NCBI RefSeq assembly: GCF_014229965.1
Contig: NZ_JABGBW010000001.1
Span: 1 to 64,000 of the forward strand
Length of the DNA stretch: 64,000 bases
Direction of reading: 5' to 3'
DNA from: Peptostreptococcus canis
GTDB taxonomy: Bacteria > Bacillota > Clostridia > Peptostreptococcales > Peptostreptococcaceae
Shown piece after piece: positions 667 through 5,948 of this stretch. The stretch's first letter is position 1. Each line of letters starts with the position of its first letter. A model generated the notes under the pieces. That model did not search any database and was not told where the DNA came from. It worked only from the letters and a program-made list of their open reading frames with translations. Both the position numbers and the translations under genes were made by a program.

Positions 667-679
667 ATAAAAAAAATAT

Positions 680-753
<74 letters not shown>

Positions 754-760
754 TTATTAA

Positions 761-795
761 AAGGCTTTACATATTAATTATGTAAAGCCTTTTTG
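761..795 (+). terminator. Terminator of the rRNA-tRNA transcript
   Basis: A 12-bp perfect stem AAGGCTTTACAT/ATGTAAAGCCTT with a short AT loop, followed by a T run. It closes the rRNA-tRNA transcript. Confidence 0.9.
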
Positions 796-817
796 ATTGC
801 CAATGATGATAGATTAT

Positions 818-1855
818 TTATTTTTTAATAATAATTCGAGTAAATCTATTGTTATATTTACATATTTCAAAAGAATTAATCACATTGCTACTTTCCCAAT
901 ACTCTAATATCCTAAATACAGCATCTCTTAATTTTTTTTTAGTTTGATTGTTTTCGGCATTTAAATCAGAATATAAATTGTCTAAATATATATTACTTTT
1001 AGTCATTGAAATTGGACAATTAAAAGCATTGTTATCCAATTTGACGTGTAACCCTGACATAGTAGAAAACCTGTAAATGAATGTATCTCTTAAAACTAAA
1101 AATTCATGCTCATTTAGATCTATAGTGTATAATAATTTTTCTTTATGAGTTTGCTTGGTCATTATATTATTAATAATTATACTGATTTTTTTTAGTTTTA
1201 AAACGGAATTTCTTATTAAAGTAATTTGTTTGTCTGTAACAACATTTGGATTATTTGAACTAATATACTTAAACAAATTTGTATAAGATATTTTATTTAA
1301 ATTATTTGCATAAAAAACAAAAATTGATCTTAATACTATAAAATCAAATATATCAAGGTTATCGTTTTGTAAAAAAAGTTCAAACTCATCAGTAAAAAAC
1401 GTTATTTTAACAATGTTATGAATATTATAGTTTTTATAAAAATGAAAAAAAGGAAAGTCATTAGATATTTCTTGAGAATTAAATTTCATTCTATAGACAG
1501 TTTTCATATCAGGAATAACATTATTGTCGAATTGGTTATAATTATTTAAAATAAAAATTAAATTTTTTATACTAATACGCCAAAAGTAATGAGAATGTAT
1601 TATTTCAGAAATTGAATTTGATATTTTTATACTGTTTGGATATGAGGAGCAAATTAAATTTATTACCTTATTTAGCTTATAGTCAAAAGAAATAATCTCA
1701 TCTAGAAAAGTTTCTAATTCTTTAATATAAGAGTTAGAAACTTCTGGAAGTAATAAAGATTTATCATTAATTAAAAAATCTAATTTATTTAGTAGTATGT
1801 TCCTTTTATTTATCAATGGATCTATAATATTATCATCTATCATTTGGATATTCAT
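818..1855 (-). CDS. Replication-initiator-like protein, uncertain
   Basis: A 345-residue, Asn/Ile/Lys-rich soluble protein; no signal peptide or membrane segment is visible. Two stretches resemble the winged-helix replication initiators of Firmicute plasmids and integrative elements. Residues ~175-240 have the pattern of a helix ending in a YANN-like turn, then a 'tdkqi.lirnsvlkLkk' segment. The last ~40 residues read KKLRDAVFRILEYW followed by a short beta hairpin, the usual C-terminal end of that group. This is pattern recall, not an alignment; the protein could instead be an unrelated regulator. It is convergent with the tRNA operon and lies directly after its terminator, a typical integration position. 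Base composition is more AT-rich than the neighbouring core genes. Its own upstream region is very AT-rich with no clear promoter. Confidence 0.5.
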   Translation of the reverse strand: MNIQMIDDNIIDPLINKRNILLNKLDFLINDKSLLLPEVSNSYIKELETFLDEIISFDYKLNKVINLICSSYPNSIKISNSISEIIHSHYFWRISIKNLIFILNNYNQFDNNVIPDMKTVYRMKFNSQEISNDFPFFHFYKNYNIHNIVKITFFTDEFELFLQNDNLDIFDFIVLRSIFVFYANNLNKISYTNLFKYISSNNPNVVTDKQITLIRNSVLKLKKISIIINNIMTKQTHKEKLLYTIDLNEHEFLVLRDTFIYRFSTMSGLHVKLDNNAFNCPISMTKSNIYLDNLYSDLNAENNQTKKKLRDAVFRILEYWESSNVINSFEICKYNNRFTRIIIKK

Positions 1856-2306
1856 ATTAAGTTGATTGTCTAAAAAATATTAAAGTTAGTATTCATAATT
1901 ATATTATTCCCTTCTATAATATTACTTAAATTCTATCATAATATATAAATATTATAAAATCTTTTAAAGAAGATGATATTGAATTATATATTTTCGTTAT
2001 AAAATTTAGAAAAAAGGATATAATAGTTGAATTTTAAAAAATATAAAGTAGAATAATAATTAGGATATTAAGTATTGTTATCAAATACAAAAAAATATAT
2101 ATTTAAACTTTATAAGAAAAAACATATTAATTCATTCGTTAATTTTAATGGCTATAATTGTATCTATATTTGTTGTATTTATTCCATATGTAACAGCAAA
2201 GTGTCAATCAATCAACTATAAAAAATTATAGAATTAGAAAATATATAATCAAAATGTTTAGATTACTTATTTAATTTATTTATATAAATTTGAGGAGGAG
2301 TAGTAA
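1856..2306. other. Gene-poor, very AT-rich spacer
   Basis: About 450 bases between the divergent Rep-like gene and the ABC permease gene. Apart from the permease-like remnant at 2064-2231, only low-complexity AT sequence is seen. A strong ribosome binding site, GAGGAGG, at its right end serves the permease gene. Confidence 0.6.
2064..2231 (+). pseudogene. Permease N-terminal remnant
   Basis: An open stretch of 55 codons between two stops, without a start codon near its beginning. The translation has a basic segment (IRKN) followed by a hydrophobic helix (LILMAIIVSIFVVFIPYV) and then TAKCQ. This is the same layout as the first ~45 residues of the intact permease that follows (KKNIKTY, helix, LKRSQAN). 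It could be the leftover of a tandem copy; chance is possible in such AT-rich DNA. Confidence 0.35.
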
Positions 2307-4823
2307 ATGTATACATACTTTAAATTATCAAAACAGTATATAAAAAAGAATATAAAAACATATATTATAATTTTAGTAGCATTGACACTTACAGTTTTTA
2401 CAATTTCGTTTCCTACTGTACTAAAAAGGAGTCAAGCTAATAATAAAATAAGATATATACAGGAAATAGCACCTAAATATGATTATCTAGGTATTAATAT
2501 TAGTACAAAAAATTTATCTGACTTGGAAAATAGTAATTTAATTAAAAATATGTATGCATATGATAACTTAGGTAGTCTGTCCATTGGCAATAATTATGCT
2601 ACTAGCCTGGTCGGATATAACAATATATTATTTGATATTTTAAAATATGATATTGTTCAAGGGGATTTTCCTAAAAAAGATGATGAAGTAATTTTAAATA
2701 AAGATACATATATTTATGGAAAAAAAGTAAATGTAGGAGATAAGTATAATTTTTTTCACGAATATAGATATAAAGAGAATGGTGAAAACAAGATAATATC
2801 AGGTAATAAAACACTTAAAGTCGTAGGAATATATAAATCTTTAAATTCTGAGGAATTGGTAAAATATCTGGCTAAAATGGGATTTAACTATAACAACGCT
2901 TATACAAATGCACAATCCAAGATAATACCTGGAGATTTAAAAACATATAATGTGTTCATAAATAAGATTAATAACAAAGTAAAAAACTACGATATATCAA
3001 GTTCCACGAATATAGAGCCAATGAAAATAGTAGAAAATGATTTTAAAAGAATCCTTACTGATACGGTGAAAAGTGAAATGGTAATAAATAAAGAAAATAG
3101 GCTGGCTGTTATATCCGTGATTATGTTAATAATAAGCGTATTTCTTATTTCTTCTCCAGATAGAATGAAGTTTGCAGGTACTATTGAAATATTAGGTGGA
3201 AATAAGAAAAAATTAGGATTATCAATATTACTTGAATATATAACATTGATAATAATTTCTACTTTAATCGGTTGTGCTTTAACATATATATCTACAGCTT
3301 TGGTGTTAAATTTTTCTGATTTTGATATTACAGGAATAAAGTTAAATATTAAAGTACCATATAAGGAAATATACTTAAAGAATAAAGATATTTATTTATG
3401 TGTATTGTTAAATGTCATATGTATGTTGATTATATATATTAAACAACTGATTAAGATTATTATTACATCTCCTATTGCATTATCTAAAAATAATAGGAAA
3501 ATAGATAAAGTAACAATGCTAATTTCAAATATAAATATCGGTAGAAGTATAAAATCGAAATTAGCATATAAGTGGATTGTTCTAAGTATTAAGTATTATA
3601 TAATTCCAATGATAATAATATGTGCAATAGGTTCTAGTTTTATTGAAGTTGTGAGTTCTGAGAAAATGGAGTCAGAATCTGAAAAAGTTTATAGTAATGT
3701 ATACGCAGAATTGATTGGGAGAGATTATATTCTAAAGACTTATTCAGAGTCTGATAAATTTGGTTTTAATAAAGATTTTATTAAAAAAGAAGCAAGAGAA
3801 TATAATTTAAATAATACTATATTTTCTTATAATAGAGAGAATTATATACTTGAGAACAAAGATAATATAAACACTGAATATTTTAATGAAAGATTAAATA
3901 ATATAAATCCAAGACCTGATGGAAGGTATGAAATTCCATTTGAATCAATGTCGTTAAATGAGAGCTATCTCAAATTTTTAAAGAGCAATAAATTAATATC
4001 TGATGATGATATAACTAGATTAAAAGACAAGAAGAATATTGGAATAATAATAGTTGATGATTTTTATAGTGATTCTCTAAATAGTAGATTTAAAATATTG
4101 AAAAATCTAAAGGACGGAGATTTTATAGATTTAAAATTGCCATATGTTACTGATAATAAAGTGGATTATAAAATAATAAAAGCACAAGTTATCAAAAAGA
4201 TACCTAGAAATGATTGGAGTAAATATTCGATTGTACAAAGATCTTTGGAAGGTAACTTAGGTATTAGTCAAATTGTTTTGGAAAACATAAGTAATATAAA
4301 TCATTATAATAACTTTGTATTCAATGGAAATAAAGTTAATGTAAATAAAATGATAAAAGGTAATAATATATATAGTTCCTTTAACTTTAGTAGTAGAAAA
4401 AATATAAGTGATAACACAAAAAAAGAAAGAAGAATAATATATTTTGGACCGATAGTAGTAAATTATTTAATAGCAGGATTAATATTAGTGTTTACTATAC
4501 TATCGATATCAAAAATGATTATGGAAATAAGAAAAAGAGATTTTAGTATAATGAGAGATATCGGGGCAAGTGAAAGATACATAATATCTATATTAAGAAT
4601 TGAAACTATTATTCTTTCATTCACAGCATTTATACTATCGTGTTTAATTGGTATTATTAGGTTATATAGAGATTATATTATGATATCAAAACTTGAAATT
4701 ATGGATAAAGGAATTGTATATACAAAATTCAGTGTAGACAATGCAGCCATATTAATATTATTTTCTATAATCTTTATAACTTTTATAGTTAATTATATTA
4801 TATTAAAAAAAATGGAAAATTAA
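2307..4823 (+). CDS. ABC transporter permease, FtsX/MacB-like
   Basis: An 838-residue membrane protein. A first transmembrane helix lies at residues ~16-38, followed by a large extracytoplasmic region, then a helix group at ~265-400 with the FtsX-like sequence EILGGNKKKLG, a further helix at ~430-450, another large external region, and a C-terminal group of three helices (~710-835) containing RDIGASERYI, the second coupling helix typical of FtsX-type permeases. The start is supported by GAGGAGG eight bases upstream. It forms an exporter with the ATPase at 4913, as in MacB/BceAB-type systems that move peptides or give peptide resistance. Substrate unknown; the radical-SAM fragment between the two genes hints at a past peptide-modification locus. 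Confidence 0.85.
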   Translation: MYTYFKLSKQYIKKNIKTYIIILVALTLTVFTISFPTVLKRSQANNKIRYIQEIAPKYDYLGINISTKNLSDLENSNLIKNMYAYDNLGSLSIGNNYATSLVGYNNILFDILKYDIVQGDFPKKDDEVILNKDTYIYGKKVNVGDKYNFFHEYRYKENGENKIISGNKTLKVVGIYKSLNSEELVKYLAKMGFNYNNAYTNAQSKIIPGDLKTYNVFINKINNKVKNYDISSSTNIEPMKIVENDFKRILTDTVKSEMVINKENRLAVISVIMLIISVFLISSPDRMKFAGTIEILGGNKKKLGLSILLEYITLIIISTLIGCALTYISTALVLNFSDFDITGIKLNIKVPYKEIYLKNKDIYLCVLLNVICMLIIYIKQLIKIIITSPIALSKNNRKIDKVTMLISNINIGRSIKSKLAYKWIVLSIKYYIIPMIIICAIGSSFIEVVSSEKMESESEKVYSNVYAELIGRDYILKTYSESDKFGFNKDFIKKEAREYNLNNTIFSYNRENYILENKDNINTEYFNERLNNINPRPDGRYEIPFESMSLNESYLKFLKSNKLISDDDITRLKDKKNIGIIIVDDFYSDSLNSRFKILKNLKDGDFIDLKLPYVTDNKVDYKIIKAQVIKKIPRNDWSKYSIVQRSLEGNLGISQIVLENISNINHYNNFVFNGNKVNVNKMIKGNNIYSSFNFSSRKNISDNTKKERRIIYFGPIVVNYLIAGLILVFTILSISKMIMEIRKRDFSIMRDIGASERYIISILRIETIILSFTAFILSCLIGIIRLYRDYIMISKLEIMDKGIVYTKFSVDNAAILILFSIIFITFIVNYIILKKMEN

Positions 4824-4833
4824 AGGAGTAGAA

Positions 4834-4902
4834 ATGTTTACAATTGTAATAACGGATAGATGTAATTTAAAATGTAAATATTGTTATGAAAGAAAAATAT
4901 GA
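4834..4902 (+). pseudogene. Radical SAM enzyme, N-terminal fragment (22 aa)
   Basis: An ATG preceded by AAAGGAG opens a 22-codon frame. Its product contains TDRCNLKCKYCYE, the CxxxCxxC cluster-binding motif in the exact form seen at the N-terminus of radical SAM/SPASM peptide maturases, then stops at TGA. A full enzyme has several hundred residues, so this is a truncated gene start, not a working enzyme. It lies 10 bases after the permease gene, and the ATPase gene begins 10 bases after it. An internal deletion that fused the maturase start to the downstream exporter gene would produce this arrangement. A short translated leader is a less likely alternative. Confidence 0.7.
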
Positions 4903-4912
4903 GGTATAAATT

Positions 4913-5593
4913 ATGAAAAAATTGTATACAAATGTATTAAAAAGATATTATGGAAAAAAGGATAGCTTAGTAAAGGCAGTTGACGGAATTTCATTAGAAA
5001 TTGAAAATGGTAGATTTACAGCTATAGTAGGTACTAGTGGCTCGGGAAAAAGCACTTTGCTTCATTGCTTAGCCGGACTTGATAAACCTACAGATGGTGA
5101 GGTTATATTAGGTGATAAGAATATATATAAACTAAATGATGATGAATTATCAAAAATTAGACGTCAAGATTTTGGGTTTATATTTCAAAGTTTCAATTTA
5201 ATACCTGTACTTAATGTATATGATAATATAATATTGCCAATACAATTAGATGGTAAAAAAGAAGATAAAGAATATATTATGAATATAATAAAAAAAGTTG
5301 GACTGGAAGATCAGCTTAAAAAGTTTCCGAATGAATTATCAGGTGGACAACAACAAAGGGTGGCAATAGCAAGAGCCTTATCAAATAAACCGGCTGTGAT
5401 ATTCGCAGATGAGCCTACAGGAAACTTAGACAGCAAGACGACAGAAGAAGTAATGAGCCTTCTTGAAAATACAGTAAGTGAACTTAATCAAACGTTAGTA
5501 ATGATAACTCATGATGAAAATATAGCGAAACAAGCGGATAGAGTAATAACTATAAGTGATGGAAAAATAATAAAAGATGAAAGGAAACAATAA
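4913..5593 (+). CDS. ABC transporter ATP-binding protein, MacB/LolD-like
   Basis: A 226-residue cytoplasmic ATPase of the MacB/LolD/BceA type. Walker A is GTSGSGKST (~residues 42-50), the Q-loop lies in FIFQSFNLIP, the signature is LSGGQQQRVAIARAL (~142-156), Walker B is VIFADEPTGNLD (~161-172), and the switch His lies in ITHDE. The full family length is present. The ribosome binding site is GAGGT. It pairs with the permease at 2307. Its last codons overlap the start of the small frame at 5577. Confidence 0.93.
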   Translation: MKKLYTNVLKRYYGKKDSLVKAVDGISLEIENGRFTAIVGTSGSGKSTLLHCLAGLDKPTDGEVILGDKNIYKLNDDELSKIRRQDFGFIFQSFNLIPVLNVYDNIILPIQLDGKKEDKEYIMNIIKKVGLEDQLKKFPNELSGGQQQRVAIARALSNKPAVIFADEPTGNLDSKTTEEVMSLLENTVSELNQTLVMITHDENIAKQADRVITISDGKIIKDERKQ

Positions 5594-5702
5594 TATAAAA
5601 AATATTCATTTAATATGTAAAAAGGTTGGATTATGTGAATCTATATTTAACTTAAAAAATGAAATTAATACAAAAAGTGGTGAAAGAAGAGCTAAATTAT
5701 AA
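5577..5702 (+). CDS. Small ORF of unknown function (41 aa)
   Basis: An ATG in the +1-shifted frame, inside the last six codons of the ABC ATPase gene, opens a 41-residue frame ending at TAA. The product is basic, with two Cys (LICKKVGLC) and a Lys/Arg-rich tail (SGERRAKL); there is no membrane segment. No strong Shine-Dalgarno sequence is visible (AAAAGATG context), so translation would depend on coupling. It could be a small peptide tied to the exporter, another decayed fragment, or chance. Confidence 0.3.
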   Translation: MKGNNNIKNIHLICKKVGLCESIFNLKNEINTKSGERRAKL

Positions 5703-5721
5703 TGAATAGTTTATAGAGTTG

Positions 5722-5752
5722 AAAGATGTAATTTTTGAATTACATCTTTATT
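5722..5752 (+). terminator. Terminator of the ABC transporter locus
   Basis: A 12-bp perfect stem AAAGATGTAATT/AATTACATCTTT with a TTTG loop, followed by ATTAATTT. It marks the end of the accessory patch. Confidence 0.75.
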
Positions 5753-5888
5753 AATTTATGAGACAGGTGAAGATATAGTCCACTATACTCAAAAGTACAT
5801 TATATCCTTCAACAGAATTTAATTTGAAGCCATATGCCATATATATTGCAAAATATAAAAAATTATGAAAAAATTATGAATTAGGCTA

Positions 5889-5894
5889 TATAAT
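5889..5894 (+). promoter_or_regulatory. Putative -10 element upstream of cdaA
   Basis: TATAAT 55 bases before the cdaA start; the matching -35 region is weak. Placed by eye. Confidence 0.4.
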
Positions 5895-5948
5895 GTTAAG
5901 GTAGATATGCTAAAATTAAAGTAGCGATATGAAATTAGGAGGTATTTT

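What the first reader, a model, noticed from the sequence alone, without database searches (positions are those of the whole stretch)
4834..4902. Radical SAM maturase start stranded inside an ABC exporter operon
With its own Shine-Dalgarno, a 22-codon frame encodes a textbook radical SAM CxxxCxxC start (RCNLKCKYCYE) and then stops 10 bases before the ATPase gene. Radical SAM enzymes with this type of start modify ribosomal peptides, and FtsX-type ABC exporters are typical partners. The locus is probably a peptide-maturation cluster that lost its enzyme by deletion, leaving the transporter or immunity genes. Intact relatives could reveal an undescribed modified peptide family.
Basis: partly seen in the sequence, partly recalled or inferred. 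Interest (0 to 1): 0.7.

Follow-up and report, generated by a model that had tools for sequence, protein, structure and literature searches.

The report
Remnant of a peptide-modifying gene cluster
A 22-codon scrap is the leftover start of a radical SAM enzyme from a decayed cluster for making modified peptides; two transport genes that probably protected the cell from its own peptide survive beside it, and intact relatives reveal a peptide family that the databases searched here do not describe.

Summary
The frame at 4834-4902 (MFTIVITDRCNLKCKYCYERKI*) is a true radical SAM start. NCBIfam PapB matches it at E=5e-6, and its best hits in eight sibling genomes are two full radical SAM genes, each in a peptide-maturation cluster that also holds the permease-ATPase pair. 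The clusters encode two or three radical SAM enzymes, an S8 protease, an MsbA-like exporter, a 51-66 residue Cys-rich precursor and usually an FtsX permease plus ATPase. They occur across the family, on plasmids and in three further families of the class. The precursors match nothing in NCBIfam or Pfam.

In the window, deletions end about 5-11 bases from the undamaged ATPase. They leave the radical SAM start, an exporter fragment (5598-5699) and a second permease fragment (2109-2216). The locus is a roughly 5-kb insertion between a tRNA array and cdaA that five siblings lack. Six other loci show the same outcome: permease (mostly with ATPase) kept, maturation genes reduced to stubs.

Best reading: a decayed RiPP cluster that keeps its immunity pair as orphan resistance. 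The decay is well supported; the immunity role is inferred. The 22 codons are a relic, not a leader peptide.

The parts
4834..4902 (+). N-terminal stub (22 codons) of a PapB-like radical SAM/SPASM maturase, with its start codon and Shine-Dalgarno (4822-4828)
2307..4823 (+). Intact FtsX-type ABC permease (838 aa), probable peptide immunity permease
   Evidence: PF02687; relatives; profile match
4913..5593 (+). Intact LolD/MacB-type ABC ATPase (226 aa), 89% identical to the ATPase of the intact G001:C47 cluster
5598..5699 (+). Fragment of the MsbA-like peptide exporter (residues about 445-478), directly behind the ATPase
   Evidence: 47% identity, E=8e-6; profile iE=1.4e-4
2109..2216 (+). N-terminal fragment of a second FtsX permease
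   Evidence: E=0.002 to the window permease; by eye close to the L031 permease start
818..1855 (-). Divergent 345-aa gene of unknown function; its homologue flanks the intact G007 cluster (L033:3642-4775)
   Evidence: 34% identity, E=2e-71; alignment A3
755..5948 (.). Stretch between the tRNA array and cdaA; five sibling species have only about 150-215 bp here

Best explanation
The locus is the remains of a horizontally acquired RiPP gene cluster. In intact relatives, paired radical SAM/SPASM enzymes modify a 51-66 residue Cys-rich precursor (inferred: thioether cross-links like those of PapB or QhpD), an S8 subtilisin removes the leader, and an MsbA-like exporter secretes the product. An FtsX permease-ATPase pair protects the producer (inferred). 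In the window, deletions removed the maturation, protease, precursor and exporter genes. They left the first 20 or so codons of the radical SAM gene between the permease and the ATPase, and an exporter scrap behind the ATPase. The permease and ATPase are intact and probably work as orphan immunity against peptides made by neighbours. The 22-codon frame is probably still translated, because its start signals are intact, and it may pass ribosomes to the ATPase, but it has no enzyme function. Shown: the identity of the stub, the intact clusters, the other remnants, the insertion and the parallel decays. Inferred: the chemistry, the immunity role and the selection.
For: Identity of the stub. In its genus the 22-aa query best matches the two cluster radical SAM genes of G007 and G001 (E=9e-7 and 3e-6; next best 1.5e-4). 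Intact clusters with permease, ATPase, S8 protease, exporter and precursor; on a Paraclostridium sordellii plasmid with public annotation. Exporter fragment behind the ATPase, in the order seen in intact L037. The window ATPase is 89% identical to that of intact L037 and groups with it. The window genome has no other such radical SAM gene and no such S8 protease. Six other loci keep the permease (five of them with an intact ATPase) beside stubs of the same genes, while a 52-kb control stretch shows no stub. Immunity: 12 of 17 precursors lie 73-108 bp upstream of a permease on the same strand, G080 has three tandem precursor-permease cassettes, and the pair is missing from some complete core clusters.
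Against: No intact cluster was found in which the permease is followed directly by the PapB-like gene, so the ancestral order and the exact deletion are unknown. There is one genome of this species and no reads, so a local assembly error cannot be excluded. Immunity and peptide chemistry are inferred from gene neighbourhood and homology. The window permease is only about 17-27% identical to other cluster permeases. The S8 stubs in L035 and L238 are weak on sequence alone (iE 0.06-0.07) and rest on position.
Confidence: 0.82

Rival explanations
1. The 22-codon frame is a functional leader or coupling mini-ORF. It was derived from the radical SAM start but is kept because its stop overlaps the ATPase Shine-Dalgarno and hands ribosomes to the ATPase.
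For: Intact AAAGGAG start signal, and a TGA overlapping the GAGG just before the ATPase ATG. N-terminal stubs also sit beside the permease or before the ATPase in L034, L035 and L042.
Against: No relative carries the same free frame. The stubs derive from different genes (radical SAM or S8). N-terminal parts hold the conserved motifs and so are easier to detect. Intact clusters express the ATPase without such a stub.
Confidence: 0.1
2. Assembly or sequencing error: the species has a full cluster and the assembly collapsed it.
For: The assembly is in 40 contigs and no reads are available.
Against: The join lies inside a 677-kb contig. No PapB-like gene of this type and no such S8 protease occurs elsewhere in an assembly listed as 100% complete. 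Independent remnants of the exporter and of a second permease flank the pair.
Confidence: 0.04
3. The permease-ATPase pair was never part of a RiPP cluster. It is an ordinary antimicrobial-peptide detoxification (BceAB-like) pair that a radical SAM fragment landed in by chance.
For: Similar pairs occur without radical SAM genes, for example L039, L040, L041 and L043.
Against: Fragments of two different cluster genes lie on the two sides of the ATPase, and the ATPase groups with that of an intact cluster. Six further loci show the same kind of remnants.
Confidence: 0.04

Closest known systems
PapB ranthipeptide maturase (NCBIfam NF047865; PapA/PapB, PMC9413430)
   Same: Best family match of both the stub and the full relatives; radical SAM plus SPASM domains; small Cys- and Asp-rich peptide substrate.
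   Different: Full relatives score 173-212 bits against a cut-off of 340. They start at the CxxxCxxC motif without an N-terminal extension, and a second radical SAM gene lies next to them in every cluster mapped. The precursors lack the repeated CX3D pattern.
QhpD/QhpE/QhpF maturation of quinohemoprotein amine dehydrogenase (PMC7876137)
   Same: A radical SAM enzyme that makes Cys-to-Asp/Glu thioethers, a subtilisin-like leader protease and an ABC exporter. The S8 proteins here match QhpE best (E=2e-15).
   Different: QhpE match is 57 bits against a cut-off of 165. There are two or three radical SAM enzymes, a small free peptide instead of an enzyme subunit, and usually an added FtsX pair.
Orphan bacteriocin immunity ABC transporters, e.g. 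Mr10EFGH of enterococci (PMC10598978)
   Same: An immunity transporter that is found both with and without the bacteriocin genes.
   Different: Different transporter family. Here the remnants of the lost cluster are still recognisable. Protection has not been tested.
SCIFF maturase CteB (PDB 5wgg)
   Same: Closest solved structure to the full radical SAM relatives (E=4e-49).
   Different: Another family; the window genome has its own SCIFF-type gene elsewhere (C12:330658).

Membership tests
Radical SAM superfamily (stub) | CxxxCxxC cluster motif in the N-terminal strand-loop context | tested here: met
   PF04055 positions 1-18, E=2e-4; RCNLKCKYCYE read directly
Radical SAM superfamily (stub) | complete partial-TIM-barrel domain able to act as an enzyme | tested here: not met
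   The frame ends after 22 codons
PapB ranthipeptide maturase NF047865 (full relatives) | curated score of at least 340 bits | tested here: not met
   173-212 bits for the three relatives scanned
PapB/ranthipeptide system (full relatives) | thioether links at non-alpha carbons, CX3D/E motifs in the precursor | not testable with these tools
   Precursors are Cys/Asp-rich with CX1-2D spacings rather than repeated CX3D (read by eye); the links need mass spectrometry
RiPP cluster (intact relatives) | short precursor with conserved leader and variable core, next to modifying enzyme, protease and exporter | tested here: met
RiPP cluster (window locus) | precursor and modifying enzyme present | tested here: not met
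   No precursor in the window by profile search; the radical SAM gene is only a stub; no S8 protease of this type in the genome
Bacteriocin/RiPP immunity ABC transporter | genetic linkage to the peptide gene | tested here: met
   In relatives 12 of 17 precursors lie 73-108 bp upstream of a permease
Bacteriocin/RiPP immunity ABC transporter | protects against the cognate peptide | not testable with these tools
   Needs a protection assay

The most novel reading that the evidence does not exclude
The intact clusters define an undescribed RiPP family: DPCK...DCxxDC precursors, a pair of different radical SAM enzymes and an S8 protease. Each precursor carries its own fast-diverging FtsX permease as a specific immunity partner, while the ATPase is shared and conserved. 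Repeated loss of the maturation genes in this genus, the window included, turns such clusters into orphan immunity loci, an arms race that can be read from the stubs.
Probability: 0.4. Interest if true: 0.7.

Novelty: new variant of a known kind. Interest (0 to 1): 0.52.

Why it matters
The scrap itself is ordinary gene decay, but it points to a widespread modified-peptide system of Clostridia, also carried on plasmids of Paraclostridium sordellii and (in a more distant form) Clostridioides difficile, whose precursors match no model in the libraries searched. The tandem precursor-permease cassettes and the conserved ATPase with diverging permeases make a specific immunity partner directly testable. 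The several half-decayed loci in one genus give a natural series for how producers become resistant non-producers.

Tried and rejected
A degenerate-pattern scan of genome contigs with the window permease found no relative. A scan with the radical SAM alignment returned mostly distant radical SAM proteins at 24-39% identity and did not name the close relatives. No plasmid holds a relative of the window permease. No solved structure matches the permease by sequence. PADLOC gives only viperin matches to a full-length relative, which reflect general radical SAM similarity. A free, conserved leader peptide was considered and rejected. Assigning the exact deletion end points by microhomology (TTATGAAA occurs both in the stub and at the ATPase start) was considered but cannot be shown without the parent sequence. 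A bias towards N-terminal stubs was considered and set aside, because detection favours the conserved N-terminal motifs.

Full report
OBSERVATION. The frame at 4834-4902 reads MFTIVITDRCNLKCKYCYERKI*. It has its own AAAGGAG start signal, which overlaps the permease stop. Its TGA overlaps the GAGG start signal of the ATPase, and 10 bases separate the stub stop from the ATPase ATG. Although only 22 residues long, it matches Pfam Radical_SAM at positions 1-18 (E=2e-4), NCBIfam PapB at positions 5-23 (E=4.8e-6) and a profile built here from 15 full relatives (iE=3.3e-8). In 60 first-order shuffles no short ORF with C[NDG]LxCxxC arose. It is not chance.

WHAT GENE IT COMES FROM. In the nine genomes of the genus, the 22-aa query hits itself and then two full genes, in G007:C34 (68%, E=9e-7) and G001:C47 (63%, E=3e-6), ahead of all other radical SAM genes. 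Both are PapB-like radical SAM/SPASM genes within clusters that hold the permease-ATPase pair.

THE INTACT SYSTEM. A search of 71 family genomes and maps of the best neighbourhoods show a recurring set. It consists of a radical SAM/SPASM enzyme with a roughly 90-residue N-terminal extension (called CC here), the short PapB-like enzyme (CYE), sometimes a third radical SAM enzyme, an S8 subtilase (Pfam Peptidase_S8; nearest NCBIfam model QhpE) and an MsbA-like exporter. A 51-66 residue precursor with a conserved leader (KIELKD/E) and a Cys-rich core (DPCK...YDCCxDC...) is usually detected with them. An FtsX permease and a LolD/MacB-type ATPase are usually but not always present. A LytTR response regulator and a GHKL kinase are often close by (Pfam assignments). 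A Paraclostridium sordellii plasmid carries the set with public annotation; its precursor MKKITEIKEKVELKDLEVQADPCANMPGTKPCKYDCCHDCYNGTSSYVSPKL is filed as hypothetical protein WP_195346531.1. A Clostridioides difficile plasmid has a more distant core set without the pair in the stretch read. Three genomes of other families of the class have the core as well. Ten precursors were run against NCBIfam, six of these against Pfam; there was no meaningful match (L036 precursor). Paper searches in the held library found no description; that library lacks most subscription journals, so the family may have been noted elsewhere.

THE WINDOW IS A DECAYED COPY. Behind the ATPase, about 5 bases after its stop, lies a 34-residue fragment of the exporter (residues about 445-478, 47% identity, E=8e-6), in the same order as in intact L037, where the exporter follows the ATPase. 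A second permease survives only as an N-terminal fragment at 2109-2216 (E=0.002). The divergent 345-aa gene at 818-1855 has a homologue in a similar place beside the intact G007 cluster (34%). No precursor is found in the window. No second PapB-like gene of this type (only the SCIFF-type gene at C12:330658 comes near) and no such S8 protease is found in the genome. The ATPase is 89% identical to that of the intact G001 cluster. The losses on both sides stop within about 5-11 bases of an undamaged ATPase, which suggests that the pair is kept by selection; that step is inference.

INSERTION. The tRNA array (162-754) is followed in five sibling species, after about 150-215 bp, by cdaA. One sibling (G008) has about 1.1 kb there; two contigs end too early to tell. 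In the window the gap is 5.2 kb, so the locus is an insertion of roughly 5 kb beside a tRNA gene.

PARALLEL DECAY. Profile searches of six-frame translations found remnants of the same genes beside retained permeases in L031 (S8 C-terminus iE=2e-6, exporter end iE=0.002), L032 (two exporter fragments, iE=3e-30 and 1e-9, plus a precursor), L034 (S8 start, 2e-4), L035 (S8 start, 0.06), L042 (radical SAM start, precursor, S8 start and ATPase pieces) and L238 (S8 start, 0.07; the exporter there is whole). A 52-kb control stretch of the window gave only a real ABC protein. In L042 the radical SAM start is fused in frame to the precursor core.

WHY THE PAIR IS PROBABLY IMMUNITY. Of 17 precursors, 12 lie 73-108 bp upstream of a permease on the same strand and one more lies 379 bp upstream; G080 has three precursor-permease cassettes. 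The pair is absent from some complete core clusters, so it is not needed for maturation or export there. Within the genus the ATPases are 70-96% identical, while best permease pairs have a median of 19% (range 17-93%), as expected for partners specific to different peptides. None of this is a functional test.

MECHANISM. By analogy with QhpD/QhpE/QhpF (PMC7876137) and PapB (PMC9413430), the intact system most likely cross-links the precursor, cleaves its leader in the cytoplasm and exports the product. In the window only the protective pair remains, comparable with orphan bacteriocin immunity transporters (PMC10598978).

LIMITS. The family is inferred to be Peptostreptococcaceae from the named plasmid relatives, and the genus perhaps Peptostreptococcus; neither was tested. 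There is one genome for the species and there are no reads. No intact cluster has the permease directly followed by the PapB-like gene, so the exact deletion cannot be reconstructed.

Noticed in passing
window 818-1855 (-); L033:3642-4775, L237:403-1563, L238:9729-10898, L239:10296-11423, L240:17968-19212, L241:9182-10312, L242:2300-3550: A roughly 345-415 aa protein family without any Pfam or NCBIfam match above cut-off, essentially confined to this genus and repeatedly next to RiPP or ABC immunity loci; possibly a regulator or a further immunity factor.
   Followed up: partly
L042:6384-6629 (-): In-frame fusion of a radical SAM start (MNFNLVVTSKCNLSCKYCYEDNN) to a precursor peptide core in a decayed cluster of another genus; the break falls just after the CYE motif, as in the window.
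   Followed up: partly
L119:1-19501 and L120:1-18500: Three and two precursor-permease cassettes around one maturation set, suggesting several peptides, each with its own permease.
   Followed up: partly
L038:7027-7525 (G000:C1 near 555000): A second permease locus of the window genome, whose ATPase gene is split over two frames with its middle missing, next to an intact permease.
   Followed up: no
L240:128-19212 (G006:C23): A different peptide-type locus in a sibling: two radical SAM genes of 507 and 514 aa, two exporters, a 361-aa protein without a Pfam match, and a member of the unknown divergent family.
   Followed up: no
window 679-754: ARAGORN calls this tRNA-Pyl (cta); the loop CTTCTAA reads as tRNA-Arg (TCT), so the call is probably a shifted anticodon. 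The same call recurs in the siblings.
   Followed up: no
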